DNA of 64,000 bases, taken from positions 47,579,176 through 47,643,175 of the forward strand of contig NC_080046.1 in assembly GCF_012489685.1 (NCBI RefSeq), read 5' to 3'. A program made the position numbers and the translations under genes. The stretch's first letter is position 1; each line of letters starts with the position of its first letter. Positions 1 to 54,035 of the stretch are shown one piece after another. Source of the DNA: Lotus japonicus (lineage: Eukaryota; Streptophyta; Magnoliopsida; Fabales; Fabaceae). The notes beneath the pieces were generated by a model, which was given only the letters and a program-made list of their open reading frames with translations, did no database searches and was not told the origin of the DNA.

Positions 1-2403
1 ATTTTTATAGGAAACATTTCTTTACCGTTTGTATGACATGTGATGTGATTAATATTTTGTGGATTGATTGTGTTTCATGATCCCTGAAATTAAACATGTA
101 GTTTTCATATGTGTCAATCGAAGTTATTGTTTACTTCAAGTATTCTGGATGATTATTAGTTAAGGTCCCTTCCATAAGAGTAATTGCTGAAATCTAGGCT
201 TTCATGGTAGCACAAGAAATCTTGGCCTATTAATCTCAATGTTTTTCAAACTTTGTCAAGTATAGTTGAGCTCCGCCGCCTCCAGAGGCAATTCCCGGCG
301 AAGTTTCTGGCAAACCTCCGTGAAAACCTAGATGCTTGACCACAAGTGGGGAATGGAGAAAGGTCTCGGCTTATGCCCTGGTGCTAGTCGTGCTGATCCA
401 GATTCTGGTGATGCCCTCTCTTCCCGTCTCATCTCATGCAATCCACATCAACCCAATTTTCCAGATCCAGATAAAGTCGTGTGGGAATGGGTTCTAGGTG
501 CTCCTAAGGTTGGTTTTTCTTTGTTATTTGCAAGGTGTTGACTGGTTTTAATTTGTGCTACCTCTTCATATTTATTTACCTTTTGTTGCATATGCATCTA
601 CTTCAGGGAACATGGGTTTGTTTCAATGGGAGTGCGTTCTGATGGATCTTATGGTATCCAACATGGTCTCATTTACTATTTTCCAGTTACATGTGAGAAA
701 GGCGTATGGAATATTGTACCAGGTACATTTTTTACTTTGTATTATGTAGCTAAGATTTGAATTTCTCTCTAGATTTTTAGCAAGTGCCAAATGATTTCTA
801 AAGTTTAATATCAATTGATCGAATTGATGTAAAAACACTTTCATCTCAATTCTTGTGCAGGGGCCTCCAATGATGGATGATTCCAAGGAAGAGGAACCGA
901 GGAGTGAAAAGGAAAGTGAAGTAATAGCTGAAACAAATGAGAAGTTATCATTAATATTGGATTTGGGGGAAGGTGGTGGTGGTGAGTTTGGTTGATGGTG
1001 GATATGATGGTAGTTTGGCTGAAAGGGATAGGTCTATGTTCTTGTTTGCTGGGTTGTTCTTGGTTGGCTGAGTTTCCATATAAAGATGATGAAGATTCTT
1101 AATTGAGTTTTTTAATTTTTTTAAAAAACCATGAATTGTTCTTGGTTGTTTACTTTGTATGATGAAGATTCTTACTCATAAACAAGTTTTTTGCTTTATT
1201 TTGTGACCCATGTATATGTAATCTTTGTATTGATGACATTAGGCACAGTGATTTTTAACCCGATCAAATTTCAAATATCTAATGAAGATGATGTATGAAG
1301 ATGAAGGTACATACGTGTTGTGCACTTCATCTATGGTTCCTCTTGCATTTTTCCTCTATAAAAAGGCTTCATCTCCATTTTTTTCTTGCTCATCGGCCCC
1401 TTTGCCCCGCCCTCCCTCACTGCCGGAGACATCCCTGGCACCATCGTCCCTTTTGTTGGATATTAGAGTAAAAATTGTTGTGCCGTGGCAAGCCACTGTC
1501 ACTGTCCTGAAGCAAAATTTTGGCGGATTTCGGTGCAAATCTCAATTGCCGGTTTTGCTCCCAAGGTTAAAACAACTGCGATCTGACTCGTGCATTCGAG
1601 ATAAAAACGCGATGGAGCCTTCATAAAATATTACCCAAAAAATTAAGAAATAGAATCAAGAAGAGCAATCCAAGAAATGAGAAAACACCTTTTTTCTTTC
1701 ACGTTTCTTCACCCATCTCCAGGTTCCCATCATAAGCAAAACAAAGGAGGATATATAATCAAAAGCATTAACTCTCATAGTTAATACTCATAATACTAAT
1801 TAAAGGCCATTAATACCATTGATTCCTTTTGCTGTTACATATTCACACGTTGACTTGGTGCTATATCATCAATTTAGGAAGATTGATAGTGAAAATCCAT
1901 GTAAGTAAATGAGCAAAAATCAAAGTTTAATAAATTTGATTTTCATTATTTCACACATTTCCCCGATGTAAACCCCACCGACGCCGAAGACAACCAGAAG
2001 ACTACCCCACAGCGGTGGTCCAGGTCCCGCAGATCGGAGGAACTTACCACTCCCCTGGCCCCACGGACGACATAGATTATGGCAACTTTTTGTGTTTTAT
2101 GGCATTTTTTTCCAATTACGGAACTACCCCTGGATTTTGAAAGGGATTTTAAAATCATTAAATAAAGATTATGGCAACTTTTCAATTTGCATTCACGAAA
2201 ACAGTATGCGTGATTGAGGTCTATGTTTTGCAAGCCTCCAATCACAACCTACAAAATAAGTCTCATGCATTCATGAAAGCGATGAAAGAAGCATAAATAA
2301 TAAGACTGTGTATGTAAGGGCAATTTAATGTGTACTGATGCAGTTAAACGTTATGCTTAGCTGCAAATTGTAAAGCTGGCGGATTTTTCTAGATATTTTC
2401 TCA
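1..2403. repeat. Left arm of a 2.4-kb inverted duplication
   Basis: This segment is the near-perfect reverse complement of 8455-10857. Both arms are 2403 bp by my boundary reading and differ by only a handful of substitutions (for example near 210, 633 and 1449). The left arm starts at the window edge, so it may extend further, and it stops exactly at the N gap. It carries a broken malate dehydrogenase fragment (about 480-930) and several short open frames I do not recognise. Either a recent inverted duplication or an assembly artefact would explain it. Confidence 0.93.
480..930 (+). pseudogene. Cytosolic malate dehydrogenase fragment (left copy)
   Basis: The stretch around 608-720 encodes residues typical of the C-terminal part of plant cytosolic NAD-malate dehydrogenase: [25 protein letters not shown], then W-x-IV before a donor at about 721. 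An upstream piece ending EWVLGAPK before a donor at 509 fits the preceding MDH exon (WVLGTPKG in the family). Relative to the family the second exon has about four extra bases just before VSMGV, so the frame is broken. The active-site and NAD-binding parts are missing. I read it as a non-functional fragment; the same fragment is on the minus strand in the right arm. Confidence 0.6.
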
Positions 2404-8454: not shown

Positions 8455-10857
8455 TGAGAAAATATCTAGAAAAATCCGCCAGCTTTACAATTTGCAGCTA
8501 AGCATAACGTTTAACTGCATCAGTACACATTAAATTGCCCTTACATACACAGTCTTATTATTTATGCTTCTTTCATCGCTTTCATGAATGCATGAGACTT
8601 ATTTTGTAGGTTGTGATTGGAGGCTTGCAAAACATAGACCTCAATCACGCATACTGTTTTCGTGAATGCAAATTGAAAAGTTGCCATAATCTTTATTTAA
8701 TGATTTTAAAATCCCTTTCGAAATCCAGGGGTAGTTCCGTAATTGGAAAAAAATGCCATAAAACACAAAAAGTTGCCATAATCTATGTCGTCCGCGGGGC
8801 CAGGGGAGTGGTAAGTTCCTCCGATCTGCGGGACCTAGACCACCGCTGTGGGGTAGTCTTCTGGTTGTCTTCGGCGTCGGTGGGGTTTACATCGGGGAAA
8901 TGTGTGAAATAATGAAAATCAAATTTATTAAACTTTGATTTTTGCTCATTTACTTACATGGATTTTCACTATCAATCTTCCTAAATTGATGATATAGCAC
9001 CAAGTCAACGTGTGAATATGTAACAGCAAAAGGAATCAATGGTATTAATGGCCTTTAATTAGTATTATGAGTATTAACTATGAGAGTTAATGCTTTTGAT
9101 TATATATCCTCCTTTGTTTTGCTTATGATGGGAACCTGGAGATGGGTGAAGAAACGTGAAAGAAAAAAGGTGTTTTCTCATTTCTTGGATTGCTCTTCTT
9201 GATTCTATTTCTTAATTTTTTGGGTAATATTTTATGAAGGCTCCATCGCGTTTTTATCTCGAATGCACGAGTCAGATCGCAGTTGTTTTAACCTTGGGAG
9301 CAAAACCGGCAATTGAGATTTGCACCGAAATCCGCCGAAATTTTGCTTCAGGACAGTGACAGTGGCTTGCCACGGCACAACAATTTTTACTCTAATATCC
9401 AACAAAAGGGACTATGGTGCCACGGATGTCTCCGGCAGTGAGGGAGGGCGGGGCAAAGGGGCCGATGAGCAAGAAAAAAATGGAGATGAAGCCTTTTTAT
9501 AGAGGAAAAATGCAAGAGGAACCATAGATGAAGTGCACAACACGTATGTACCTTCATCTTCATACATCATCTTCATTAGATATTTGAAATTTGATCGGGT
9601 TAAAAATCACTGTGCCTAATGTCATCAATACAAAGATTACATATACATGGGTCACAAAATAAAGCAAAAAACTTGTTTATGAGTAAGAATCTTCATCATA
9701 CAAAGTAAACAACCAAGAACAATTCATGGTTTTTTAAAAAAATTAAAAAACTCAATTAAGAATCTTCATCATCTTTATATGGAAACTCAGCCAACCAAGA
9801 ACAACCCAGCAAACAAGAACATAGACCTATCCCTTTCAGCCAAACTACCATCATATCCACCATCAACCAAACTCACCACCACCACCTTCCCCCAAATCCA
9901 ATATTAATGATAACTTCTCATTTGTTTCAGCTATTACTTCACTTTCCTTTTCACTCCTCGGTTCCTCTTCCTTGGAATCATCCATCATTGGAGGCCCCTG
10001 CACAAGAATTGAGATGAAAGTGTTTTTACATCAATTCGATCAATTGATATTAAACTTTAGAAATCATTTGGCACTTGCTAAAAATCTAGAGAGAAATTCA
10101 AATCTTAGCTACATAATACAAAGTAAAAAATGTACCTGGTACAATATTCCATACGCCTTTCTCACATGTAACTGGAAAATAGTAAATGAGACCATGTTGG
10201 ATACCATAAGATCCATCAGAACACACTCCCATTGAAACAAACCCATGTTCCCTGAAGTAGATGCATATGCAACAAAAGGTAAATAAATATGAAGAGGTAG
10301 CACAAATTAAAACCAGTCAACACCTTGCAAATAACAAAGAAAAACCAACCTTAGGAGCACCTAGAACCCATTCCCACACGACTTTATCTGGATCTGGAAA
10401 ATTGGGTTGATGTGGATTGCATGAGATGAGACGGGAAGAGAGGGCATCACCAGAATCTGGATCAGCACGACTAGCACCAGGGCATAAGCCGAGACCTTTC
10501 TCCATTCCCCACTTGTGGTCAAGCATCTAGGTTTTCACGGAGGTTTGCCAGAAACTTCGCCGGGAATTGCCTCTGGAGGCGGCGGAGCTCAACTATACTT
10601 GACAAAGTTTGAAAAACATTGAGATTAATAGGCCAAGATTTCTTGTACTACCATGAAAGCCTAGATTTCAGCAATTACTCTTATGGAAGGGACCTTAACT
10701 AATAATCATCCAGAATACTTGAAGTAAACAATAACTTCGATTGACACATATGAAAACTACATGTTTAATTTCAGGGATCATGAAACACAATCAATCCACA
10801 AAATATTAATCACATCACATGTCATACAAACGGTAAAGAAATGTTTCCTATAAAAAT
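8455..10857. repeat. Right arm of the 2.4-kb inverted duplication
   Basis: Reverse complement of 1-2403 with a few substitutions and no obvious large indel. This arm sits in continuous sequence on both sides, so it is the more trustworthy copy. It carries the malate dehydrogenase fragment on the minus strand (about 9930-10380). Confidence 0.93.
9930..10380 (-). pseudogene. Cytosolic malate dehydrogenase fragment (right copy)
   Basis: Mirror copy of the fragment at 480-930. Read on the minus strand, it shows WVLGAPK before a donor near 10349, then the VSMGV and [11 protein letters not shown] words at about 10140-10250, then a donor and a diverged last piece (PPMMDDSKEEE). The few extra bases before VSMGV are present in this copy too, so the frame break predates the duplication and is not a sequencing slip in one copy. 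Confidence 0.6.
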
Positions 10858-20225: not shown

Positions 20226-20380
20226 TTTGGTCCATTTTCTCTTCTCTTCCTTTACTCTCGAAACAAACAAGCACAAGAGAGATATGAATAGAGGAGAGAA
20301 GAAATTATTAATATAACGAGGGATGCCATAGAAGAAGAAAATAGATATCAAGAAAAACATAATAAAATTGGGACGTAAAA

Positions 20381-20924
20381 GAGCATGTTCAATGCAAGAT
20401 TGCTAGTTGGGTTGCTTAAACACTATTCTGGTGGGTCTAAACTGCCACATAGGATTTAAACAACCCAAACATAATTCGCTCAAACCACGGTTGCTTATTT
20501 TACTTTTGTTTGGGTCTCACTATACCTCGTATATTTATATTATTTCAAGATAATGATACTATCTAAGTTCTTGAATGAAAAAGAAAATATTTTTTTAGTG
20601 AAAAAACAAGAAGAAAGAGAATAAACAGCCGTTGCTTAAATTTAAGCAACCAGACTATCATGTCATGTTGCTCCAAAATAAGCAACGTTGCTTAAGTACT
20701 CAAACTGAATTAAGCAATGTTGAGTATATTTTCTCTTTCACTCAAGTGTCATGACCTTAAAATAATATAAATATATGAGGTATAGTGGTACCCAACCAAA
20801 AGTAAAATAAGCAACCATGGTTAGAGAGAATTCTGATTGAGTTACTTAAATTCTACGTGGCAGTTTGAGGCCACCAAAATAGTATTTAAGGAACCCAACT
20901 AGCAACCATGCATCAGAGATGCTC
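20381..20924. mobile_element. MITE with inverted ends, 5' of the bZIP gene
   Basis: Left end GAGCATGTTCAATGCA and right end TGCATCAGAGATGCTC are related inverted repeats. Pairing continues through TTGCTAGTTGGGTT, the CACTATACCTC/GAGGTATAGTG words and AAGTAAAATAAGCAACC. The element is about 544 bp with no coding capacity. The target duplication is not clear. It ends some 360 bp upstream of the start codon of the CesA-HY5 fusion gene, so it may contribute to or disrupt its promoter. Confidence 0.7.
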
Positions 20925-20937
20925 TAAGAGAAATAAG

Positions 20938-21280: not shown

Positions 21281-24200
21281 ATGGATCAGCATGGTGGAGT
21301 TGCAACTGGGTCGCATGAAAGAAACGAACTTGTTCGAGTTAGACACGGTTCTGATCATGGGGTTTGTGATTCTCAGACAAGCTTTTGATTCAACATTTCA
21401 GTTCATAGGATTTTTAATGATGTTTTTTTTTCTGGGTCGGGGAGTTTTGTTCTTACAGTGTTTGTTTGACTCTAAAGTTTGGATCTTTTTGCTTGTAATG
21501 GTAATGGGTCATAGGAGTTTTGTTTGTTCTTCTTCTTTTCCTTGCTTTATACAACTAAACATTTTTGAAGTTTTATCCTTTGGTTTGAAAATGTTTACAG
21601 TGTCATTGATTTAGTTAGGATGGTTGGATGTTGATATCTCATGTTTGATCTCTTGCTTGTACATTCCATTTGACTGATGTTTTGCTATTCATGGTTTGAT
21701 TGATGCTTTTCTATTGATGACTTGAATCTGAAGTTTCTCTTTGTTGGAGGGTGATTGGGAGGGGATTTGATGCTTTCTCTTGTTAAAATTTGTAATTTGA
21801 TGCATGGATTTCAAATCAAACTATTGGTGCTTGTTGAAAATTTAGAGGTTTGGAAGTGGGATAGGCTATGTAGGAGGCTTTGTTCAGGGATTTGGAACTG
21901 GGTAGATAGACCTGTTATTGTAGTTTGGAGTCTAGTAGCATTGATAAAAACTGCATAATTGCTGTAATCGATTGCCGGATCCTGATACATTTCATCGCTA
22001 ATTTTTATGACATTTTTTTAAGGATGAAATCTAATTTCTTTGCCATTCTAATTTGTGTGGATGGGGCATGTCTTTTTTACTTGTAATCTTTTAAGAAATT
22101 GATCTGGATAGGCTTACTTAATGCTTATATAATTCTTATGGTGTGTTTGGATGAACTGCTTAATTGTGCTTTTATGTCAAACAGCATTTATAAACGCTTA
22201 TTTGAGAATTTATTAGAATCTAAAAATTTATATGTCGGAATGAGCTCTTATTAAGAAGTTATTCTAAGAAGCTTATCAAAATAAGCTAAAAAAAGCTTGT
22301 TGGTAGGTCATAAGCTATTTTATAAGCTTAATGAAAAACTTCCTTTGGTGCTTATTCTTTAAGATAAGCTCTTCCAAATGCATCCTAATTCTAACTTGTA
22401 TTATTTTTTCGTGTTATGCAGTCCAAACCCGTAAAGAATTTGAATGGTCAAATCTGTCAAATATGTGGCGAAACTGTTGGCCTAACAGCCAACGGCGATA
22501 TCTTCGTTGCTTGCCATGAGTGTGCTTTCCAACTTTGTCATCCTTGTTATGAATACGAGAGAAATAATGTGAGCCCATACTGTCCCCAGTGCAAGACTAG
22601 ATACGAAAGTCACAAAGGTTAGCTTGCGCATACAGGTTATTTTGGTTTCAGTCTGTTCCTCGTCAAAATTTGCAATGAACAAGATGAATTTGGTTTGCAG
22701 AGAGTTCTCAAATGGAGGGAGATGATGATGATGATGATGATGAAGATGATGTCGATGATCTAGAGAATGAGGTCAAGTATGGTCAAGGAAATAGAATGAA
22801 GGCAAGGCTTCAATGGGAAGAAGATGCTGACCTCTCTTCATCTTCTGGACATGATTCTCAAATGCAAAATCCTCATCTGACAAATGGGCAGCTGGTAATT
22901 TATTAAACTGGTTTTTACACTCTCAACTTGGATAAACTCGCAAGTGTACTGGCAAAAATGTGTGAACTTACTTATAGACTCAGGATTAGTTCAAATTGCT
23001 CAGACTTAGTAAAATTTGAACGAATTTGAGTGAAGTTTGAAAATTATGAAAACTTTGGTAATCTTTATCGACTTTTTCACTTTTAATGCTGTGATACTCA
23101 TGTAATTCATGTAATAATTTATGAACTTCATTCACAGCCTACTGGTAAATAATTCTCTGCTCATATTTGGTACTGCATTTTGCTTTAATATACTAATATT
23201 AACTAACTTTCTTTTTATGGCCAGATGTCTGGTGAGAATCTATGTGCTACTACATCAGGTCCTATGGGTCAATCCAAAAAGGTTCAGTCACTTCCATATG
23301 TTGATCCAAAGCAACCAGGTATGGAGTTAACTTGAAGTGATGGTAGCAGATCACATTTTATGGTTAGGGTAAATCCTAAAGTGAAAATATCTTTTTATTA
23401 CCATTCCTCTAAGAGTTTTAAACCTATCAAAGAATTTTAATTTTTTATTGAAATTTATTTAAAGATTAGTAAAGGAAATGCTCTTTCTTTATGAAAGCTA
23501 CACTTTTCTTTTCTGATGCATGATACTTATATATGAATTTAAACCAATTAAAATCAAATTATGAATGACCCAATTTGGTAGCTGATTGTCTAGCATAGAA
23601 TGCTCATGTGTTTAATTTTGGTGTCCATGTCTTGTGGAGTTTCGTAGTTTTCTTGTCCAGGATATCTCTGAGGCTGTGACCTCTAGGAGTGTTTCCTTTC
23701 TTTGGGACTTTGCCTCTCCATATCATGAAAAAAGATCGTTTTTCAATTTTTAAACTCTAGACTTGAGAACTGATATCTTACTTTTTGTATTTCAAGTTTT
23801 CTTGTTATTTATGTTATATAGTATATGAGTTAGACTTTTTTTAGTTTGAAATTTTTTCCCATAAAAATAAAAAATCAACATGAATTAAAAAAACCTATAA
23901 ACTAGTGTTGGTTAGTAGAAATAATGATTAAGTCGCTAGCCTCACTATGATGTGGATGTTTGTCTTGAACAAGATTACTTCCTATTGATGATACATGTGG
24001 TGCACCAAAAAAGGGATAATGAATAAGTCACTTGACACAATTAGTGTTGTGTTGACAGTATCAATTACTTGAATCAATGTATCCTTCCTGTTGTGTTGTA
24101 TTCACATAAGTAAATAAAATATTTACTGGGATTTGAATTTTTAATGACTTTGGCATAATCCAGGTCTTGAGAGTGATGAGGAGATCAGAAGAGTACCGGA

Positions 24201-26636
24201 GTTTGGAGGTGAGTCTGCTGCCACTTCAGCTTCTCGTCCTGACACTGGTTCAAATCCTGGTCCAGAGCGTGTTCAGGGAGCAGGGGAGGGTCAAAAGAAG
24301 AGAGGGAGAAGCTCAGCAGACAAAGAGAGCAAGCGGTTGAAGAGGTATGTATGTAAACTTGGTTCGTCTAGTATCAACTCTAAACCCTTTTTCCGGGGAT
24401 TAATTCATTGCTTTTTGTAATTTGTTTCACTGAGTGGGTGTAAAAATGATAATTAGGCTACTGAGGAACAGAGTTTCAGCTCAGCAAGCAAGGGAGAGGA
24501 AAAAGGCATACTTGACTGATTTGGAAACAAAAGTCAAAGACTTAGAGACGAATAATTCAGAGCTCAAAGAGAGACTTTCCACTTTGCAGAATGAGAATCA
24601 AATGCTAAGACAGGTATTTCAAATTTGCACATTTAATCATTGTTAGGAATGTTATATAAAACCATTATTGTTTTCACCCAATAGCTTTAACTTTTGGTGC
24701 ATAACAAAGTATCAGAGTCTCTATGCCAATTAACCAAGTGGTGTGGAGATTTAATCCTTTTTTGACACGATATATGTGGGTTTGTGTATTATTCACACTT
24801 CAAGCCCACTTAGGCTATTGTGTGGAGTGTATTTAAAATATAATATAAAAAACATGGGTACGTTTCCATCTAATAGCTTAATAAGCTTTTGTGATAGTTA
24901 ATTCATGACTATTACCATCCTATCATCGTCACGCTATCATGATATTATTGTTCTTTGAATGTATTGAGCTGATTTATCTTTGATGAAGTTAATACACCTA
25001 AACATTTTAAGATCGCATTGTCATTACATCTTATTTATTATTCACTTGATTACTCTAAACTATGATTTAGAAAGGGAAAAAAGGGCATTCATGTTATATT
25101 ATCCATGATTTACAACCATCAATATCAGTTTAGATAGGAATTATGTATAAGACAATTAATATACTTAAAAAGTGCTGGTTTGAGTGGAAGAGACTCAGGT
25201 CCTTTTATCATTTGGCTTTGGGTTTGATACTAAGACTCATGTGTATGAGAAAAAATGCTACTGGGAGGAGTCCCCGCCTCTAATGCTTGATTGTTAATCT
25301 TTCATCTACTACTACTAGGGTGGGAAATACTTGAGAAACCAAAATAATATGCATATGGGAAGCCCGTTGATCAATTACTGATATTACCTAGTATTTTAAA
25401 TCTTATTCTGTTTACTGGGCAAAGTATAACATAAAAGATGGGTGGTGAATATGCCCATACTTGTCTCTGAGCATCACACACCTCCAATTCCATATTATGT
25501 CAAATGGTTAATGTCAGTGTCAGTGGTTGATGATGAATATCGTAATGTGCTCTTGTCTGCATGTGTTGATGTTTATTTTTTTGTTGGCTTTTGAAATTTT
25601 TGGATGGGTGCAATGAATATATACCATATGCTATTCTTTGGGGGTCTGGATGATATCTTAAACTTGAAATGGCATTAGTTCGATTAAATAATCTCATGTC
25701 AAATGACCTGTGTTGCACGGGTACGGGTACGGTACCCGGTACGGGTACGGTATTGGGTACGCGGTACGCGATTTTTGAAAAAATAGGGGTACGGGTACGT
25801 TAGATATATGCATATTTTTTTAAATATAATATATAATAAAATATACATAATATTTAAATATAAATAAATTATGCAAAAAAAAAGGCAAAATGTCGTCGTT
25901 TTGAGCAGGAAAAAAATATATAAAGGCCAAAACGACGTCGTTTTGAGCCAGAAAAAAAAAAAGGGGGCAAAACGTCATTATTTTGAGCCCAGGAACCTTT
26001 TTTTTTTTTTTTTGGAACGGGTAGGTACCGGGTACGTACCCACAGTGTACCGGGTACCGGGTACGTACCCGGTACGGGTACGCGGCCAAAACAGCCGTAC
26101 CCATGCAACAGAGCAAATGACACTATCCTGTGAAATTTCGTGTCTAAATGACTATATCTGTCAGCATAATTGTCAAAAAGTCTCACCTATTTAATAGGCA
26201 TAAAAAAAGAGATAGACACGAAATTTCAACACTGACTTCACGAGATGACTTCGATGTGACATCAGTTATACACCCTCCGGTCACATATATAAGCAAAAAA
26301 CAACATTTTAGGTTCATTCAATAAATGATGTATCTAGTAATGAATGTGTGTAAATTGAGCTTCTTTTTTTTGGGGATTGGTGATTTCCTTGGAAAGCTCT
26401 CAACTACACTTGTTTTGAAGTGAATGAAATAAATCTAAAATATGAGCTGTCAGCTTGATGTCTATGCTTGTAATTGTTCCTTATGTGCCCATACCAGACC
26501 ACATTTGGTGGGACCCTGTATCTACTGTTCTCTAGCCTTATTGCCTTTGTTTATATTTCATTGCTCTTTGCAGATATTGAAGAACACTACAGCAAGCAGG
26601 AGAGGGAGCAATGGTGGTACCAATAATGCTGAATGA
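21281..26636 (+). CDS. ASTRAY: ASTRAY/LjBzf-type transcription factor: CesA N-terminus fused to HY5 bZIP, 321 aa
   Basis: Predicted exons: 21281-21361, 22422-22617, 22701-22894, 23225-23318, 24164-24344, 24457-24613 and 26574-26636. All have GT-AG borders and one continuous frame. Residues 1-188 read as the N-terminus of a cellulose synthase: [13 protein letters not shown], an eight-cysteine zinc finger (C39, C42, C58, C61, C66, C69, C81, C84), an acidic run (100-116), and [14 protein letters not shown] and LPYVDPKQP. From 189 it is HY5: [14 protein letters not shown] (COP1-binding type, VPEFGG at 199-204), basic region with N253-x7-R261, leucine heptads at 271, 278, 285, 292 and 299, and the ILKNTT tail. 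Known role: ASTRAY in Lotus is a light-signalling bZIP that restrains nodulation. Nuclear, DNA-binding via ACGT cores. Orthology to ASTRAY rather than a paralogue is inferred; the domain content is certain. Confidence 0.92.
22141..22390. mobile_element. MITE-like insertion in intron 1 of the fusion gene
   Basis: Ends GGTGTGTTTGGATG and TTCCAAATGCATCC resemble Tourist-type inverted ends. The interior has inverted AAGCTTAT/ATAAGCTT words. It lies wholly in the 1060-bp first intron. The target duplication is unclear. Confidence 0.45.
25708..26113. mobile_element. hAT-like MITE in intron 6 of the fusion gene
   Basis: The 406-bp element starts CTGTGTTGCACGGGTACGG and ends CCGTACCCATGCAACAGAG (17 of 19 inverted matches). 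It is flanked by a perfect 8-bp target duplication, CAAATGAC (25700-25707 and 26114-26121), as for hAT elements. Both ends are built of tandem GGTAC/GGGTAC words. The centre has three degenerate copies of a unit like CAAAACGACGTCGTTTTGAGC, spaced about 50-60 bp. It lies in the last intron (24614-26573) in a region that is otherwise spliced out. Confidence 0.85.
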
Positions 26637-29177: not shown

Positions 29178-32100
29178 TTAAATCCTGGAAGGGATCATAG
29201 GGATAGTGTTCTGCAAGTATGCACTGGCAGCAGCAACTCCACTTCCAAGCTTTACAGGATAACCCACATCTTGGAGAATCATCTCTACACCAGCAAGAGC
29301 ACCCAAGAGTTGCAACTGCAAAATATTTAAGGATCTAAATTAAAAACATCATACTTTTGAAGCATAAGATACAGATTAACTACTTCTACTTTTTAATGTG
29401 TAACGGTAATGTTGCTGTCATGTGACAACATTACTTGTGGAATCAGTCTCTTGCAAAAATGTAAGGTAAAGCTGCCTGCCTACATTAGATCCATAAAGTG
29501 TACCTACCACTCCCTTGGCCTCGCGCATAGCAAAAGATTTATAGCACCGGGTTTGCCCTTTTTTAATAAGTCAAATATTTTGAGGGTTTACATGTATTGA
29601 TTATCCAATGGTTACTTTTCATTTGACTTGAGGACTGCGTTTTAAACTTCAATTCAAACATCCATTTCACTGCAAGAAATCCAACCTATGTTCCAAGAGA
29701 ATAGAATAGCCAAACTCCACCCAAAAGGCAAACCAAAACAATGTGTCTGTGGCAGTTATATCCATGAATATGATGCTGATGGGAGTTTGGGAAATTAACA
29801 TTACCTCATTCAAGTTTCCAAGATGTCCAATTCTGAAAACTTTCCCAGCAACCTTGTTTAGTCCCAGACCTAAGCTCATATTGTATCTCTTCCATGACCT
29901 TTTAACTACTTCAGCACCATCAATGTAAGGAGGAACAACCACAGCAGTCACTGTGTCACTGAACCACTCTTCCTTTTGGGTGCAATTCTTCAAACCCCAT
30001 GCCTCAACAGCAATTCTGTATTTAGCATATTGAGGACCTATCAGATTCATGCATTTTCTTAAACATGTGAAAGTTAAATCTATTATCAACATTCACAGTC
30101 TTTTGCTCACTTGTCAATAACTAGTATATTTTCTAAGAATGATTTCAACAAGCAAATAATGCCTTACCTGGTTGCTTTACCTAAACGTTTGTGCCTTGCA
30201 AACACATTTTCAAGTCCCTCCTCAAAAAGCAGATCAAGAGCTGTTCTGAGACCATACAGCAACTGAATAGAAGGAGTGTATGGCCAATAGGTTCCCATCT
30301 CGTAGAACTTCAGGTAGTCCTTCCAGTCAAAGAAAACTCTGAGTGATTTAGCATATTTTGAAGCCTCAAGAGCTTTAGGGCTTGCACACACAATTCCCAT
30401 CCCGGTAGGAAGGGAAAGGGCTTTCTGGGAGCCAGTTATGGCCACATCTACTCCCCATTCATCCATGCGGAAATCGAGAGCACAAATGGAAGACACTCCA
30501 TCAACAATGAGGAGGGCTGGATGATTGTAGGCATCTGAGGTTCCAAAATACAATGTTAGAAGCCATTTCATAAACACAATGAGTATAAAAACACCAACAT
30601 TAAGAATCCAAATTGTTTGAGCGATATGTTTTTCAATTTTGTTCTATTTTTGTTTTCAAAAGCTAAAAACTGTTTTACAAGACAATAATCAAACCAGACA
30701 TCAGTATCCAAAGGCTGCTGGTTGCAAATGATTTGATGCATTTGCAGACCAGGAAAAGGCACTAAGAAAAACATAGTCATCAAAGAATAATAAAAGTTAT
30801 GTCAATTTACAAATGTAGATAATCATTGTAAAGGCAAACATTATTTTGGGACCTAAAACACAGCACTTAGAGTCCAAAAACAAACAGATATTACAGGACA
30901 AAAGAAAATAAACAACATCTTAAACAGCAATTGATCATCAAATGTCCAAAAACAGTTATTTATAAGAATTGTTCATTGAGCAATGGAACTGAGAGCATTT
31001 GTCTACAATTACAACTAGGAACATCCAGTACAAATACAATTCAATTTTGTGACTCTGGCAGTTTATAGAGAATAAAGGATCGTATACTGTACAGGATACA
31101 TGAGTAAAAGCTATAATTTAAGACAAGTAGATGACATGCTCACCAAGGAGTTTTCTCACTTTGGACAAGTCATTGGTGACCCCAGTTGCTGTCTCATTGT
31201 GAACAATGCAAATTGCCTTAATAGTGTGTGCAGAATCTGAAGCAAGTTTTGATTCCAGAACATCAAGATCGGCACCCCGGCCCCATTCACTTTCGACAAC
31301 ATCAACATTGAAGTTAAGGCGTTGCTGCTGATCAATCCAAAGCAAACTGAACTGGCCAATCAGGAATGATACAGTGCGATCCCCAGGAGACAGTGTGTTT
31401 GTCAGAGCACTCTCCCAAGCACCAGTACCTTCACCAAATGAAAAAGGATTTATTTATAACAAGATAACTATAACCAAGTGAAAAGCAAATTATTTGTTCT
31501 TATTGGACCAACCTTATGCAATAAGTTTATTCTATGATAACCGAACTTATTCTATTGATATTCAAAACACACACAAAAGAGCAAGAAAGATACTAAGCAA
31601 ACAAAAAACAAACACACACAATTCAACCACTACTCTAGAATATCCAATGAGAATTCTGCAGTCAAGTTCCATTTAGTAAAATTTCAATCCTCAAATCAAG
31701 GTCCTAATATTGTATGTAGTCTAAGGACTAAGATGCCGTTTGGATATGGACAAAAAGAGCAGCTAGAGAGAACACTAGATAAGCTCCAATAAGTGCTTTT
31801 TGGTCCGGATCCTAAATAGAACATGAATGATAGTGAGTTGATTAAGCATGTACTTGGATGCATCTAAGTGTTAAGTGGACATCATCCTGAAGATTAAGGG
31901 ACAGTGTCTAATTGATTTTATGAGACTAAAACTACTCACATGATACAATAAACAATTTGGCTTGTACATGTAATTATGTAAACAATACCAGTTGTAGGGA
32001 TAAGAAATGGTGTTCCAGTAGTAGTCTTGAAAATCTTCTTGACATCCTCAAGCAGAGTTTTTGTCAAAGCTGGAATCGCCGGAGCACGGTAGTCCTCATT

Positions 32101-35809: not shown

Positions 35810-38800
35810 TCAAATGTGTTTTGGTTGCTTTGCTTGTGCCAGCATTTCAACCACTTCCCTCATGGTTGGTCTCTCCACACTGTGTTCATTAACACATAAC
35901 ATGGCCACAAAAAACACTTGCTCTGCTTCATCTAAAGGAATGTGACTTAGCCTCTCATCAAGGATCTTCATCACCATCTCTTTGTTCCAATTAGTTTGCA
36001 TCTTGGTCCATTGAACAATGTCTAGTCCTTCTTCCTCAAAGTCCCCCACTGGTCTTCGCCCTGTAATGAGTTCTAGCAGCACCACTCCAAAGCTATAAAC
36101 ATCACTTTTCTCATCTACTTTCAATGTGTATGCATACTCTGCAACATAAAGTCAAATGAATTAAAAATATGCTACCTTTCACTACTTTTGCTCCACAAAT
36201 AAAGTAGCCATGACAGTATAATAATCTAGATATTTCAAAAGAAAAAATGGTACCTATTATAAAAATTTGACAAGTAAAAGAGTTTAAGGTAGGAAAATTA
36301 GCCTAACATTATTTTATAGATAAAGAAGGGGAAAAGCTTCATTTCAATTCTCCCAAGTAATAAATTAAATTGTTAATATCCTAGTTATGTCTTGTGTGGT
36401 AGTGCCTTTGAAGTCTTCATTTTTTTTCTGGGGTTTTGAGAAAGTGAATCTTAGATCCCAATCACAAACTTTGAGGGGAAAAATATATGCATTTGGTTAG
36501 TGTGCATTTTGATGGCTGAGGATGTTAAAGATATGATTAGGAGTTCTGGTCAAAAAAGAACTTGTTCTGGTAAAAATCAGGGGTTTGTAGTTTCAAGGCA
36601 TGCAAGCAAAGGCACTTACTCAGTTCGCATGAAGAAAAAGCTGAAAGAACTTCCTTTGTGTTAGTGGAGCATTTGCTCAGTCTAGGAAAAAGAGCAAGTA
36701 CTTGCTAGTTGCTACATTGGTGAAGGTGAGAAAAGAATATTTTTTCACAAAAATAAATGAAAAGTATATTTAATCCATGGAACATTTTGCTATCAATATT
36801 TGATTTTGGATGTTAAATTGAAAAAAAAAAGCCCTGAATTAACCATTATTGTTGTTGCATGCTAGGATTTTTACTCATTTCACTTTTTCAAATCAGCAAT
36901 CTAAACATTAATGCCCTCTGAACTGTTTTTTTTTTTTTGGGATGGTAGGTAATAATGTCTCTCATGAGTCATGAACTTGAAGTTGGTGATGCAATTGCTA
37001 ACCAATTAGATTAAGAAAGAAGTTATAATATAATTGAAGTAATAATCACTTTTCAAACTATCTGGCTTTTTAAATTGAAGTACCTGGAGCTATGTAGCCA
37101 TAAGAACCAGCAATGGAAGACATGCACTCTGAAGTCCCAGTATCTTGCATGAACTTGGCAAGCCCAAAATCAGCAACATGAGCCTCAAAATCAGAGTTCA
37201 ATAATATGTTGTTTGACTTCACATCCCTATGGATTATCAGAGGGGAACAATCATGGTGCAAATAGCAAAGCCCTTTTGCAGCTTCTGTGGCTATTTTCAG
37301 CCTAGTATCCCATTTCAGAAACTCACCCCTCTTCCCATGCAACACTTCACCTAAGCTTCCATTTGGCATGTAATCATAAACAAGCAAATTGGTCTCTTTG
37401 TTTGAACAAAATGCTAGCAACCTCACAATGTACCTGTGCCTGATTCTACCTAATGTTTTAATTTCTGCTGAGAGGCCATTGTCATGAGAAGAGCCTTTGT
37501 TGATTCCTAATAACTTCTTCACTGCAACTTCCTCTCCATTTGGCATGGTTCCTCTGTACACAACCCCAGCTCCACCTCTTCCTATGACATTGCTTTCCTT
37601 TATGCATCCCACAATGTCTTCACTCCCATATTCCAGTTTCTGAAATGATGTTAGCTTCCATGAATTGGAGTGTTTCCTTGCTTTTCTGCTCTTGATGATG
37701 GCTAAGGTTGCAAACACAAATGAACATCCCAACAATGCCAATGCAAAAAGAAGCTTGAATTTCCCAGGGACTACTCCAGGTTTTGCACTTTGAGATTCCA
37801 TTGCTGTTGTTGAAGAAAGGTTGCATGGATTGAACTCATATCCACATAGCTGAGGGTTAGCCACAAAGGATGTTGAATTAAAGATTGAAAATTGCCCTCC
37901 TTCAGGTATTGAACCTGAGAAGTTATTGTGAGAGAAATCTGCTGAAGTTAAACCCTTCATGGTCCCAAGTTCCTTGGGAATGCTTTGATTGAGGTGGTTC
38001 AATGAGACATTAAGATAATTTAGTATAAGAATTTGAGTAACTTGAATTGGGATAGGGCCTAATAGCTGGTTTTGGCTTAAATCTAAGTATGTGAGTAAGG
38101 TACAGTTACCTATCTCTGGAGGAATAGTACCTGAAAAGTTGTTCATACTCACATCCAACTTGATGATGTTTTTCAATCTCCCAATATCTGGTGGAATTTC
38201 ACCTGAGAATCTGTTTCCACTAAGCTGAAGAATTTGCAAGTTGGGAAAGTTTCCTATTGAAGCTGGCAGAGAACCTGATAAGTTATTGTTTGATAGAATC
38301 AATTGTCCAAGTCTGGAGGGTGCAATTGCCTTGCTTGTTTCTTGTGGAATTTTACCACTGAGATAATTGTTCTGCAGTTCCAAAAGAGAGAGCTCAGGCA
38401 AGTAAAGGAAACCATGTGGAAGTGAACCAGTTAAGTAGTTTTGACCCAAACGAACTCTTTGGAGTGTGTAGCATTGACCAAGTTCATCAGGCAAAGATCC
38501 AAACAGAAAGTTTCTCAGCAAGATCAAAATCTGCAGCCTCTTTCCACTGCATAGAGATTTTGGGACTAGTCCTGTGAGCTTGTTTGTTGAAAGGTCAAGC
38601 TCAGTTAACCTTCCATTGTGTCCAAGCTTTGGAGGAATCACTCCAGTGAAGTTGTTCTGCCAGAGCTTCAGCACCTCCAGTTTAGGTAGCTCAGCAATGA
38701 AATGAGGGATTTCTCCATGGAAATTGTTGATGAAGAGGTTCAAGAGGGTGAGTTCTTGAAGGCCTGAGAACTCATAAGGGATGTCTCCTGTTAGCTTGTT

Positions 38801-39652
38801 GACTGAAAGATCAAGATTTTTCAAACTAGTCAAGTTTCCTAGCTGAGGTGGGATTGATCCTGTGAGCTGATTAGTTTGCAAGAAGAGTGTGTCTAGCTTG
38901 TAGAGTTTTCCTAACTCAGCTGGAATTGAACCATTCAAGCCACAGTTTGCAAGGTCTAAATGAACCAAGTTGATCAATTCACCAAATTGAGGTGGGATCC
39001 CACCTTCAAATTGATTGTAGTATCCCAATAAAAGATGGGTAAGGTTAGTGAGATTCCCAATCTCACTTGGTATGAAACCACTCAAATCATTTCCTGCAAG
39101 AGACAGAAAGTTGAGCCCCCTCATTTTCCCATAGCTTGGAGGGATTTTCCCAGAGAAGTAGTTCCCTCCAAAATTCAAGTGCTTGAGCCATGGGAGTTGA
39201 ATCACACTCTCAGGAAGTGAACCATTGAACTCATTGTTATAAGCATCAAGAACCTCAAGCTCCTTCAAGTGTGAAATTTCCCAGCTCAAGTTTCCACTGA
39301 ACATGTTGTTAGACATGTTGAGGAATCTCAGGTTTGGTAACCTATGAATACCAGAAACTGAACCAGAAATGTTTAAATTGGATATGTCAAGTGATGACAC
39401 CACAGAAATGTTATTATCATGGTCACACTGAATGCCATGCCATGTGGTGCAAAGGGACAAGTAGTTAGAGATTTTCCAACTGCTCAAAGAAGAGTGGTTA
39501 GCAGCTTCAAAACCTTGTTTGAGAGAAACCAATACAGAAGCTTGGTTTCTCAGAGAAAGAGGAAGTGAAGAAACAGAAGCAGGACTAGTAGTGAGGAACA
39601 GAAAGAGGAAGAGGAAGCAAGTGATCACAAAACTGAAAGAAGGAGTGGCCAT
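35810..39652 (-). CDS. BAM3: BAM3-type LRR receptor kinase (CLV1 family), 965 aa
   Basis: Exon 1 is 39652-37084 and exon 2 is 36138-35810; the 945-bp intron splits the kinase APE motif (CCA-G/AG), the usual position in CLV1/BAM genes. I chose the start at 39652 because it begins a signal peptide (MATPSFSF, then a leucine/phenylalanine-rich core); the in-frame ATG at 39742 lacks one. Order: LRR N-terminal cap with CTTWHGIQC, about 20 LRRs (including [17 protein letters not shown] and HLDLANC), paired cysteines CGYEFNPC, transmembrane 634-653, and a kinase with GRGGAG (691-696), K712, HRDVKSNN (D810) and DFG (828). All key residues are present, so this is an RD-type active kinase. Family role: perception of CLE peptides at the plasma membrane (BAM3 binds CLE45 in root phloem). 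Closest in wording to Arabidopsis BAM3; the orthology is inferred. Confidence 0.95.
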
Positions 39653-41024
39653 AACTGGTTTAGATAGAGGAATGAAAGAGCAATGAGAACATCTCAACTC
39701 ATAGAGCTTAAAGTTATAGTGAATATACACTAGAAGATACAAAGAGAGTGATGAAGGTAAAGGGAGCCAACAGCATCAGCATCAGCATCCAATGTACTCT
39801 TTTTTTCTCTTCTTCTTTCCCTCCCTCTACACTTTTTTTTCTTTTTCTTCTTTAGATTCACGCACACACTTACACACACTACTTACTTTCACTTTGGTGC
39901 CATCTTTAGCTTTTAAAAAGCAAAAGCAAAAGCAATGTGTGTTCGGATAGAAAATGGATAACCACAGACAGTTTCATCAACCAATTAATGTGTCGGTTTT
40001 TCAGACCAGTTTCATTCACCATTGTCCTTTGCTTTTCTTTCCTTTGATTTATGAACTTTGAGCGGGTCCAACATGACAGTTGATTCAGATTTGGAATCTT
40101 CATTAGTGGAGCTGAGGGGATATATATGATTAAACCATCTATGGAGATTTTAAAGCATCAATCGTGGGAAACAATAAAGCTTCAACAAGAGTTTTTAGCC
40201 TATTAATTGCACTTCAACTTTTTATTTCTGGTTTTTAGGAGGAGGGTTGGAAGAGGTATGTAGAACCCTATATTTGAACCGGTCAAGTTCGGCACTCAAT
40301 CGACATACTAGTTTTTTTGTGTGATTTTGAACTACTAGTAATGTGCATTGTCAAAAAGACAGCTATCAGGAACTAAAACTTGGAATCTGTTTCTTAAAAT
40401 TACATTTTGAAATTCCAAGTTTTGGTTCTTAAAATATATTTTCAAAAGCACATTTGGGGAATCGGTTATGAGTAGGTTTTTTTTATAAAACTTAACACAT
40501 TATTGAAAGTTTTTTACTGCTAGAACCTGCATATGTCAATTGAATGTCGATACTTCATGTGAGGTTTACAAATATTTTCCTAAAAAAATAACTATATTAA
40601 GTATCTATATTGACATTAAAATTATTCCCTATAAATATATGTATCTTTTTCTTAATTATTACATCATTTACATGTATGTTGTATTGTAGATACCCTAGAA
40701 CTACCCAAACTTATGACTAATTCAAATTGGTCAATGGCATTATCAACTGTGGCAGTATTGCAGGAAGCCAAGCTCGGCATGCTTCAAGACAAAGCATAAG
40801 AGTTGAGGAATTGATTGCTGAATGTGTTGGTCCCATTCTGTGAATAATTTGTATTGTTTTGGGTGGTGGGTTTTAGGGCCCATTTCTGGCACCAAGCCAC
40901 TGAAAAACAAGTACTTTGGGTACACGGTCTTGACCCCCAAAAAAAAGTACATCATTGGTCTGTTTTTCGACCAAAAGAGGTACCTCAATTGTTTGTTTCA
41001 CTTGAAAAATTAAGGCTATAATAT
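39653..41024. other. Receptor kinase promoter and intergenic
   Basis: The first few hundred bases hold the 5' leader of the kinase gene, with CT-rich stretches on the plus strand (39790-39850). No clear TATA element is assigned. The rest is AT-rich with short frames only. Confidence 0.45.
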
Positions 41025-43380: not shown

Positions 43381-43452
43381 ATCAGAGTGGCGCAGCGGAA
43401 GCGTGGTGGGCCCATAACCCACAGGTCCCTGGATCGAAACCAGGCTCTGATA
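43381..43452 (+). tRNA. tRNA-Met initiator (anticodon CAT)
   Basis: The 72-nt sequence folds as a standard cloverleaf. The acceptor stem ATCAGAG pairs with CTCTGAT, with A as discriminator. The D arm is GCGCAGCGGAAGCG, the anticodon arm GTGGG-CCCATAA-CCCAC has CAT at 43413-43415, and the T arm is CCTGG-ATCGAAA-CCAGG. The A at the start and the ATCGAAA loop (no TTC) mark plant initiator tRNA-Met, as opposed to the elongator type. It has no intron and no encoded CCA. A T-run at 43473-43479 serves as Pol III terminator, and CAA triplets sit just upstream, as is usual in plants. Confidence 0.97.
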
Positions 43453-46755: not shown

Positions 46756-47935
46756 CTAACTAGAAACATTCACAACAATTAGACTTCGCACATTATGGAT
46801 GCTATCTAACCAGACAAGTAATGAGATGAGCACAATTCCCTTTGGTAGTTTCTCACCAATGATGTTGACCACAAAATACTTGTTCTCATTCAATAATTTT
46901 AAGGAAAATGTCTCAATTTGGCAACACAGTTGTTGTGTAATTGGAGGTTGCAGTCCCAACATTTGTGATTGTTCTATGAAAGACATCACTTAAAGATGTC
47001 ATAGGCTCAACAACAACAACAAGTGTAAGATGATTATAATTCCTCACTAAAGATCCATCACGAGCTCGAGAGCAAGAGATACTTTCTCCAAATATGATTT
47101 TGATTGTTTGATTATCATATCCCAAATTGCACAACAATTGCACATAGTCCTCCTTATGAATGTCATATATAAGGCCAAGATCAAGAGCTTTCTCAGGGTT
47201 ACCATGCTCTGACCTATAAGCACATTCACCAATTTGATCCTCATTATTAGAACCATTTGTGGGTCTTGTTGTGGTCATGATGGCAGGTTTAATTGTTGTT
47301 GGTGACCAATCCAAGTGAAAAGATTTCACGAAAGCAGCTATTGCAGCATCATGAGGATATGACATAGAGGTTTAAGGTAATATGTTATACTGTACAGATC
47401 TGGTGTCTTGAGGAATATGAGAGGGTGAAGAATTTGAAGGGTAGGCAGTCAAGATCTATAATCCAGGAGCATTAATATATAGTTTGAAAATTTATGGATT
47501 AGCCACCATTGGGGCAACATGATGTTCAGTTGTCTCACTACTGAGGATTTTAGTTTTTCGATTCTCTGGTGATGTCGCATAAGCTTCTACAACAACATAC
47601 TCATGCGAATACAATTGCACAAATGGAAAAGGAGAAACTTCAGTTGTGGAATCAGCTCCATCCTCACTGTGATTAGATATCGCTTGGATTACACCACGTG
47701 TTCCATTAATATACGCTTCATAAGGGCAAGCCTCATTATGATCACAAAACGGAATTTTACCTTTGATTGATTCTTGTGATTGTTGCATGATGATGGGGAA
47801 TTTGGTGCCATTTGAAGGGGTGGTGTTGATCGAAATCCCAGTTAAAGTTTCTTCATTCCCAAGAACCACCTTGTCGACGAACTTACGACCAATGGTTCTC
47901 GCTGCAACCGAAAGTACCTTGTCGACGAATTTATC
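46756..47935 (-). pseudogene. Subtilase pseudogene A, C-terminal half
   Basis: Read on the minus strand from about 47935 this follows a plant subtilisin-like serine protease (S8): FVDKVVLGN..TLTGISINT (protease-associated insert), then GKIPFCDHNEACPYEA, then HVAPMVANP, APG..ILTAYPS, TSMSYPH around the catalytic serine (usual TSMSCPH), VKSFHLDWSPTTIKPAIMTT and the fibronectin-III-like tail ending VVNVSS before a stop. In-frame stops and frame changes lie near 47490, 47445 and 46915. The N-terminal half with the catalytic Asp and His is missing. It is not functional. Confidence 0.85.
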
Positions 47936-50878: not shown

Positions 50879-51466
50879 AGCTATAATCAAAATAGCATCT
50901 TCCTTCATGACAAAAAAAGTCATAGTATTAATTTGGGGATTTGTTTTTGTTAATTAAATTAGAGTTTTTTTTTACAGTAATTGGTTTTATTTTTGTTAAT
51001 TATATTAAATTTTTTGATGTGTTATTTAATTTTTTTAAAATCCACCTAATCATCATTAACATAGTTAGCAGGTCAAATCATCACTCGCCAGAGTACCGGG
51101 CTCCGATGGGGACTTGCTCCATACGTTTTACCTAATGGATGATCTTTTGCAAAATGTTTTACGGTGATGGACCTAGTTCAAACGGCAAGACAAACACAAG
51201 GACCGATTTGAGAATCAAGCCTTAAATTAATATAATGTTTAATATTATTAATTAATTAATTTATCATAATTGTTGATTTCAACATTAAATTCTTTATAAT
51301 ATTTTGTATATTATATTGAATGTAGCATTTAAAACTTGTCAAAATAAAAAAATCTCTTGTAACAAAAAAATCAAAGTGTTTAATTGTAAAAAAGATGTGT
51401 ATATATTCGCACCGGAGTGGGTAGTCATTGTGTAGCATTCACTCTCTTTATTTGGAGAACCATTGC
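50879..51466. other. Intergenic upstream of subtilase pseudogene C
   Basis: AT-rich apart from a short GC-richer block (51075-51125). No gene or element border is supported. Confidence 0.4.

Positions 51467-54035
<2,569 letters not shown>

What the first reader, a model, noticed from the sequence alone, without database searches (positions are those of the whole stretch)
21281..26636. A HY5-type light regulator whose first half is the N-terminus of a cellulose synthase
Seen: residues 1-188 carry an ordered set of cellulose synthase words ([14 protein letters not shown] start, zinc finger with eight cysteines in CesA spacing, DDVDDLENE acidic block, [21 protein letters not shown]), and residues 189-321 are HY5 from the COP1-binding motif to the C-terminal tail. 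Known: ASTRAY/LjBzf-type proteins of legumes are described as RING-finger plus acidic region plus bZIP. Inference: the 'RING and acidic region' is a captured CesA N-terminus. In CesA proteins this zinc finger mediates dimerisation, so the bZIP may have gained an interface with CesA subunits or a new homodimer, and loss of HY5's own N-terminus may alter its phosphorylation control.
Basis: partly seen in the sequence, partly recalled or inferred. Interest (0 to 1): 0.88.

Follow-up and report, generated by a model that had tools for sequence, protein, structure and literature searches.

The report
Legume HY5 with cellulose-synthase front half
In the pea-and-bean branch of legumes the light-response regulator HY5 carries as its first half the front end of a cellulose-making enzyme, apparently joined exon-to-exon from a gene that sits next door in several other plants, and the most tightly preserved piece of that half is a short acidic stretch rather than the zinc finger.

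Summary
Confirmed. Seven exons at 21281-26636 encode a 321-aa protein, 320/321 identical to a Lotus japonicus HY5 record. Residues 1-188 are a CESA1-class cellulose synthase N-terminus (E 2.6e-74); 189-321 are HY5. Homology switches at intron 4, where CESA1 exon 4 ends and HY5 exon 2 begins. The fusion was listed from 17 papilionoid genera and has one origin; Senna, mimosoids, Bauhinia and Quillaja were listed only with plain HY5. So this is the papilionoid HY5 (ASTRAY/STF1 type), not an oddity of one plant. New here: HY5 and CESA1 have neighbouring gene tags in Bauhinia, Juglans and Buddleja, share a contig in Actinidia, and are run together in a Hevea model (HY5 then CESA1), so the capture was probably local, by tandem duplication with breaks in two introns; 12 other species do not show the linkage. 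Constraint shifted: the finger relaxed (eight Cys kept in 19/20), while [16 protein letters not shown] (131-146) became nearly invariant and the stretch around it lost basic residues. The serine aligned with AtHY5 Ser36 is kept. I favour an acidic regulatory module over a CesA-dimerisation interface; that is inference.

The parts
21281..21361 (+). Exon 1, aa 1-27, corresponds to the CESA1 N-terminus
   Evidence: tblastn of CESA1 proteins matches 21281-21361
22422..22617 (+). Exon 2, aa 28-93, CesA-type zinc finger with eight Cys
   Evidence: Pfam zf-UDP 29-105; CESA1 tblastn 65-75% identity; Cys table
22701..22894 (+). Exon 3, aa 93-157, acidic tract (GAT repeat at 22721-22759) and the conserved block 131-146
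22814..22861 (+). Codons of residues 131-146, the near-invariant block [16 protein letters not shown]
   Evidence: translated; conservation
23225..23318 (+). Exon 4, aa 158-189, CESA1-derived up to DPKQP plus the first base of the Gly189 codon; Lotus lacks most of the (P/S)DTQSV(R/Q) stretch that most other fusions keep
23319..24163 (+). Intron 4 (845 nt, phase 1): the junction between the CESA1-derived and HY5-derived parts
   Evidence: CESA1 matches stop at 23317, HY5 matches start at 24163
24164..24344 (+). Exon 5, aa 189-249, HY5 exon 2: [14 protein letters not shown]1-binding motif and start of the basic region
24457..24613 (+). Exon 6, aa 249-301, basic region and leucine zipper
   Evidence: Pfam bZIP_1
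26574..26636 (+). Exon 7, aa 302-321 and stop, HY5 C-terminal tail

Best explanation
This is the HY5 gene of papilionoid legumes (ASTRAY/LjBzf of Lotus, STF1/2 of soybean, LONG1 of pea; names partly recalled). SHOWN: its first four exons are CESA1 N-terminal exons and its last three are HY5 from exon 2 on, joined at an intron where both parents have a border; one origin, before genistoids, dalbergioids and mirbelioids split. No plain papilionoid HY5 was among the named hits listed, so the chimera seems to have replaced HY5. INFERRED (likely): HY5 and CESA1 were head-to-tail neighbours (HY5 upstream); a tandem duplication with one break in HY5 intron 1 and the other in CESA1 intron 4 makes this chimera while leaving both parents whole, and puts it behind the CESA1 promoter; plain HY5 was then lost. 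INFERRED (function): the protein works as a COP1-controlled, nuclear, ACGT-binding bZIP as HY5 does; the CESA1 part serves as a regulatory arm. The strongest candidate for its working piece is the acidic, Trp/Ser-bearing stretch (aa 117-146), most simply an acidic activation or phospho-regulated docking segment, with the zinc finger as a folded, relaxed protein-interaction module.
For: Gene structure and one database protein across both halves. CESA1 and HY5 homology. Borders: Ilex and Ipomoea CESA1 models that run past exon 4 read ...DPRQP-G..., as the fusion does; a Populus HY5 model that keeps an intron reads ...KEG-intron-MESDEE. Fusions listed from 17 genera; plain HY5 from Senna, Prosopis, Neltuma, Acacia, Bauhinia, Quillaja; lineages of seven genera looked up. 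N-half tree: fusions one clade 100/100, legume CESA1 plus fusions 95.3/92; C-half tree: fusions 96/100, Fabales with fusions 92.3/98 (trees; supports read by split). Separate Arachis origin rejected, AU p 1.9e-11. Neighbours: Bauhinia tags 024301/024302, Juglans 026161/026163, Buddleja 0135600/0135700, Actinidia same 425-kb contig, Hevea model DUF4666-HY5-CESA1. Shifted constraint and charge. STF1 C-terminus rescues Arabidopsis hy5 (PMC10146240, passages). COP1 acts on STF1/2.
Against: AU tests do not exclude an N-half from outside rosids (p 0.195) or outside eudicots (p 0.113), nor choose between sister to legume CESA1 (0.454) and nested in papilionoids (0.525); the C-half is unresolved among legumes. 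Neighbourhood rests on locus tags and contig lengths read by eye; 12 other species with both genes listed have them on different contigs, Arabidopsis included, and in Cajanus and Arachis the fusion and CESA1 are on contigs of different length. What lies upstream of HY5 is not constant: Buddleja, Morella and Acacia models join other genes to it. No further CESA1 exon, HY5 exon 1 or DUF4666 gene was found in the 64-kb window, so the old order is not preserved here. STF1's C-terminus rescuing hy5 means the N-half is not needed for HY5 action in Arabidopsis. No activity of the N-half was measured. Charge and conservation counts use related sequences and reflect one shared ancestral shift.
Confidence: 0.72

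Rival explanations
1. CesA-interface model: the zinc finger gives the bZIP a new homodimer or a contact with CesA subunits, coupling cell-wall synthesis to light signalling.
For: All eight Cys kept in 19 of 20 fusion models, the exception being a model with a gap there; sequence relation to 1weo E 5.9e-31; CesA finger dimerisation recalled (Kurek 2002, not read).
Against: Finger identity 0.80 among fusions against 0.93 in legume CESA1; mean K+R in the finger 6.2 against 10.0; ASTRAY used as a nuclear marker.
Confidence: 0.15
2. RING ubiquitin ligase: the finger recruits an E2 and makes legume HY5 ubiquitinate itself or a partner.
Confidence: 0.08
3. Retained passenger: the N-half has little function of its own; what mattered was the promoter swap to CESA1 control, and the N-half stays because it carries the start codon.
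For: STF1 C-terminus rescues hy5; finger, exon-1 and exon-4 parts have relaxed; Lotus deleted part of exon 4.
Against: Block 131-146 is about as conserved as the bZIP (0.95 and 0.96) and more than in CESA1; of 173 windows of 16 residues only those starting at 130 and 131 show such an excess.
Confidence: 0.2
4. Gene-model artefact: two neighbouring genes wrongly joined, as in the Hevea model.
For: Such joined models exist.
Against: Order here is CESA1 then HY5, opposite to Hevea; no other CESA1 exon in the window; 21 of the first 22 hits, from 17 genera, carry both domains, with one origin; ASTRAY was amplified from Lotus cDNA (passage); STF1/2 were followed by immunoblot in soybean (passage).
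Confidence: 0.01

Closest known systems
ASTRAY/LjBzf of Lotus, STF1/STF2 of soybean, LONG1 of pea
   Same: This is the Lotus member: CesA-type finger, acidic region, COP1 motif, bZIP. A soybean record named 'TGACG-motif-bin...' (P0014, Q39896) is among the fusions; STF1 is spelled TGACG-motif-binding factor 1 in PMC10146240. No pea protein was among the hits shown by name; LONG1 is recalled.
   Different: The review seen calls the extra part a RING-finger motif (PMC8801436); none of the papers seen states the CESA1 origin, the exon-exact junction, the neighbour origin or the constraint shift.
Plain HY5 (Arabidopsis AT5G11260 and other angiosperms)
   Same: HY5 from exon 2 on: [11 protein letters not shown], bZIP, tail; S36 kept as S192, L137 as L292.
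   Different: HY5 exon 1 (MQEQATSS...KE) is replaced by four CESA1 exons.
CESA1 cellulose synthase
   Same: N-terminal 188 residues, zf-UDP finger, and the exon borders that could be inferred.
   Different: No catalytic or transmembrane part; basic residues lost and block 131-146 fixed in the fusion.
Chimeric genes made by tandem duplication with breaks inside two neighbouring genes (general knowledge)
   Same: Proposed mode of origin; parents survive.
   Different: Here a transcription factor was rebuilt with an enzyme's N-terminus and then seems to have taken over the parent's role.

Membership tests
HY5 (group H bZIP) | bZIP domain of HY5 type | tested here: met
   bZIP_1 E 1.7e-14; zipper match to HY5 2oqq
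HY5 (group H bZIP) | COP1-binding motif with ESDEE...VP | tested here: met
   E191 S192 D193 E194 E195, V199 P200 invariant in 23 sequences
HY5 (group H bZIP) | HY5 exon-1 peptide (conserved in plain HY5; not a defining feature of group H) | tested here: not met
   Nothing better than E 1.7 in the window; replaced by CESA1 exons
Legume RING-bZIP HY5 (ASTRAY/STF1/LONG1) | finger + acidic region + HY5 bZIP in one protein | tested here: met
   320/321 to a Lotus HY5 record; the published ASTRAY accession itself was not fetched
Plant cellulose synthase (CesA) | N-terminal zf-UDP finger | tested here: met
Plant cellulose synthase (CesA) | catalytic domain (Cellulose_synt) and transmembrane region | tested here: not met
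   no Cellulose_synt match in the protein; no CESA1 match in the window outside exons 1-4 at E up to 1
RING-type E3 ligase | E2-dependent ubiquitin ligase activity | not testable with these tools

The most novel reading that the evidence does not exclude
Papilionoid HY5 carries a built-in acidic activation domain, refined from a linker of CESA1 (aa 117-146: basic residues lost, [16 protein letters not shown] fixed), under a promoter inherited from CESA1. HY5 elsewhere depends on B-box cofactors for activation; the legume form would be partly free of them and expressed where walls are built, including roots, which would help explain why a light regulator controls nodulation in this subfamily.
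Probability: 0.22. Interest if true: 0.85.

Novelty: new variant of a known kind. Interest (0 to 1): 0.62.

Why it matters
HY5 is a central light regulator in plants, and in soybean and pea it is described as HY5 with a RING-finger motif. If the extra half is a CESA1 N-terminus, then work on it as a RING ligase may be misdirected, several public records named 'cellulose synthase A catalytic subunit 1' are really HY5, and the gene's promoter may be CESA1's. It would also be a clear case of a transcription factor rebuilt by exon-exact fusion with a neighbour and then replacing its parent across a large subfamily. It makes testable why legume HY5 acts on nodulation.

Tried and rejected
Tried without result: further CESA1 exons in the window (none at E up to 1 with four CESA1 proteins); HY5 exon 1, DUF4666, and the genes joined to HY5 in Buddleja, Morella and Acacia models (nothing better than E 0.55); flanking genes for synteny (aminotransferase class V, LRR kinase, subtilase pieces, transposon protein; 5 of 10 reading frames had no Pfam match; none matched a HY5 neighbour seen elsewhere). 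The genome search on the window's own assembly did not complete, so the Lotus CESA1 locus and any plain HY5 were not checked directly.

Considered and dropped: an Arachis CESA1-like decayed model (P0065) whose contig length equals that of a fusion (P0021) as a relic of the event; in the tree it is a recent Arachis copy. BIN2 control through CESA1 Thr157 (site recalled; the review passages seen say only that BIN2 phosphorylation inactivates CESA1): the T is absent in Lotus and replaced in Canavalia, Cajanus and Gastrolobium, and missing in the A. hypogaea model. Grouping of the fusion C-half with the CESA1-linked Bauhinia HY5 copy: support only 70.7/54 and not separated from alternatives. My trees as printed were rerooted in a way that shifts support labels along one path; the supports in this report are the ones recomputed by split. 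The structure comparison says only RING-like.

Selections before counts: trees and per-site work used 20 fusion proteins (the window's and 19 of P0002-P0022; P0014 and P0021 were not entered) and 31 CESA1 (30's 120 listed, plus P0065). averages dropped P0015, P0016, P0022 (17 fusions; 7 legume, 23 other CESA1); its Cys table used all 20. One search dropped P0015, P0016, P0019 (17). One search dropped P0016 (19). P0065 was left out of all three. The block 131-146 was picked after seeing the alignment.

Print: no paper seen states the CesA origin (ten searches; open-licence library only). Not held and not read, looked up by recalled ids: Nishimura 2002 PNAS, Song 2008 (45), Sanchez-Rodriguez 2017 (46, 68), Weller 2009 (69), Wang 2021 on SPA and HY5 (71); any of them may have noted it.
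Full report
WHAT IS THERE. The + strand at 21281-26636 holds seven exons with GT-AG introns and a 966-nt reading frame. The 321-aa product is 320/321 identical to a Lotus japonicus record (P0001, I3T931; E161 here, G there), so the window is very probably Lotus, and one database protein spans both halves. Pfam finds the CesA zinc finger zf-UDP (4.3e-35) and bZIP_1 (1.7e-14). Against solved structures, residues 2-188 match a cellulose synthase along 2-192 at 2.6e-74, and 265-305 match the HY5 zipper. That cellulose synthase, 8vhz, is by far the best match of Arabidopsis CESA1 (2263 bits, next 1761), so the class is CESA1.

AN EXON-EXACT JUNCTION. tblastn of CESA1 proteins ends at 23317 and tblastn of HY5 proteins begins at 24163; exon 4 ends at 23318 and exon 5 begins at 24164. 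The Gly189 codon is split 1+2. Protein models that seem to read into introns suggest that both parents have a border here: CESA1 of Ilex and Ipomoea reads ...DPRQP-G... and then unrelated residues (P0024, P0028), an Arachis fusion isoform ...SKQP-G... (P0030), Populus HY5 ...KEG-extra residues-MESDEE (P0041). Border 3/4 agrees too: extra residues after NGQ or its equivalent in fusions P0016 and P0030 and in CESA1-like P0065 and P0086. So whole exons were joined, with the breaks inside introns. The parents' own genomic DNA was not seen.

DISTRIBUTION AND AGE. Of the first 22 hits (120 of 490 listed), 21 carry both domains and one (Medicago) is a truncated model. They come from 17 genera: Lotus, Spatholobus, Canavalia, Abrus, Psophocarpus, Cajanus, Glycine, Clitoria, Trifolium, Lathyrus, Flemingia, Gastrolobium, Vigna, Lupinus, Cicer, Arachis, Medicago. 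Lineages of Gastrolobium (mirbelioid), Arachis (dalbergioid) and Lupinus (genistoid) were looked up, all Papilionoideae; Senna and Neltuma are Caesalpinioideae, Bauhinia Cercidoideae, Quillaja another family of Fabales; the others are placed from general knowledge. A Vigna mungo hit without the finger (P0023) starts inside exon 3 and is a fusion fragment. A search with Senna HY5 listed 120 of 1084 hits: the plain HY5s among Fabales are from Senna, Prosopis, Neltuma, Acacia, Bauhinia and Quillaja; the named papilionoid entries (Psophocarpus, Spatholobus, Cajanus, Flemingia) are fusions. A few listed hits are unnamed, and the 964 unlisted hits were not seen. A review gives four group H genes in soybean, STF1/2 as HY5 and STF3/4 as HYH (PMC10146240, passages), which fits replacement of plain HY5.

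TREES. On 191 columns the fusion N-halves form one clade (100/100, SH-aLRT/UFBoot) that joins legume CESA1 (95.3/92); legume CESA1 alone as a clade has only 24.6/67 (tree, supports by split). On 132 columns the C-halves form one clade (96/100) within Fabales (92.3/98) (supports), unresolved inside it.

NEIGHBOURS. By locus tag, HY5 and CESA1 lie one or two tags apart in Bauhinia (L6164_024301/024302), Juglans (F2P56_026161/026163) and Buddleja (Bualt10G0135600/0135700), on a contig of the same length (425 kb) in Actinidia rufa, and on a contig or chromosome of the same length in Typha, Eleusine and Tetracentron. Carya has both on chromosome 7 (217500 and 216500), but in different assemblies. 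A Hevea gene model runs DUF4666 start, HY5 exons, CESA1 exons in that order (P0199), and a Dorcoceras model joins DUF4666 to HY5 (P0085); models from Buddleja, Morella and Acacia join other genes upstream of HY5, so only the HY5-CESA1 side looks constant. Against: 12 species with both genes listed have them on contigs of different length (Hibiscus, Rumex, Arabidopsis, Rutidosis, Tripterygium, Camelina, Gypsophila, Trapa, Cannabis, Urochloa, Smallanthus, and Digitaria, where one contig is only 0.34 Mb), and in three the contigs are too small to tell (Drosera, Colocasia, Artemisia). Listings show only some copies, and this comparison was made by eye on the tables. In Cajanus and Arachis hypogaea the fusion and CESA1 are on contigs of different length. 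With HY5 upstream of CESA1 a deletion cannot give CESA1-HY5; a tandem duplication from HY5 intron 1 to CESA1 intron 4 gives HY5, chimera, CESA1. The geometry fits, resting on one Hevea model for the orientation; no array was seen, and the Lotus window keeps no trace.

WHAT SELECTION KEPT. All eight Cys are present in 19 of 20 fusion models. Mean pairwise identity, fusions / legume CESA1 / other CESA1: finger 0.80/0.93/0.84; exon-4 part 0.64/0.91/0.69; block 131-146 0.95/0.73/0.74; bZIP in fusions 0.96. In matched taxa (Cajanus, Lupinus, Arachis) the block is 0.94, 0.94, 0.88 in fusions and 0.62, 0.50, 0.79 in CESA1. Among 173 windows of 16 residues, two (starting at 130 and 131) reach the excess over other CESA1 seen at 131-146; random 16-site sets reach it in 21 of 100000 (sites are not independent). 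In 117-146 mean K+R is 1.3 in fusions against 4.6 and 3.5 in CESA1, net charge -4.0 against -0.3 and -0.5. The block was chosen after seeing the alignment, and the taxa share one ancestor, so these are descriptions, not independent tests.

HOW IT PROBABLY WORKS. As HY5: the COP1 motif, the serine that aligns with Ser36, and Leu137, needed for BIN2 contact (PMC7101348, passages), are kept. In soybean, STF1/2 are more abundant in cop1 mutants (PMC9141786, passages), and the STF1 C-terminus rescues Arabidopsis hy5, so the HY5 half suffices for HY5 action there. B-box proteins are rate-limiting cofactors of HY5 (PMC8801436, passages). An added acidic Trp/Leu/Ser segment under strong constraint therefore suggests activation or phospho-regulated docking. 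This step is inference. The predicted model has a RING-like finger, mostly low confidence between 92 and 232, and a long bZIP helix (239-312), mean pLDDT 59.5.

VERDICT. The probable local origin and the constraint shift are the new points.

Noticed in passing
window 1-2403 and 8455-10857: Perfect inverted repeat, two arms of 2403 nt at 100%; the first arm ends exactly where a run of 100 N begins (2404-2503), which smells of an assembly join rather than biology.
   Followed up: partly
window 20380-20925: Foldback element (181-nt arms, 83% complementary) about 350 bp upstream of the start codon; its right arm holds CTACGTGG, which fits the HY5/STF1 C/G-box HBACGTGD quoted in PMC5049392 (passage). 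Such a match is expected about once per kb by my rough estimate.
   Followed up: partly
window 25710-26110: Insertion in intron 6 with GGTAC-rich inverted ends and CAAATGAC on both sides, MITE-like.
   Followed up: no
P0002, P0004, P0006, P0007, P0012, P0013: Public records of legume HY5 fusions are named 'cellulose synthase A catalytic subunit 1', evidently because of the fused N-half.
   Followed up: yes
P0199 (Hevea), P0144 (Salix viminalis): A HY5+CESA1 joined model, and a CESA1 protein labelled 'X-BOX TRANSCRIPTION FACTOR-RELATED', may both reflect neighbouring genes confusing annotation.
   Followed up: partly
window 35813-39775 (-), 30167-30643 (-), 46916-47371 (-), 51390-51818 (+): Flanking genes: LRR receptor kinase, aminotransferase class V, subtilase pieces (the 35813-36151 frame was read by eye as kinase).
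   Followed up: no
window 43381-43452 (+): tRNA-Met (CAT).
   Followed up: no
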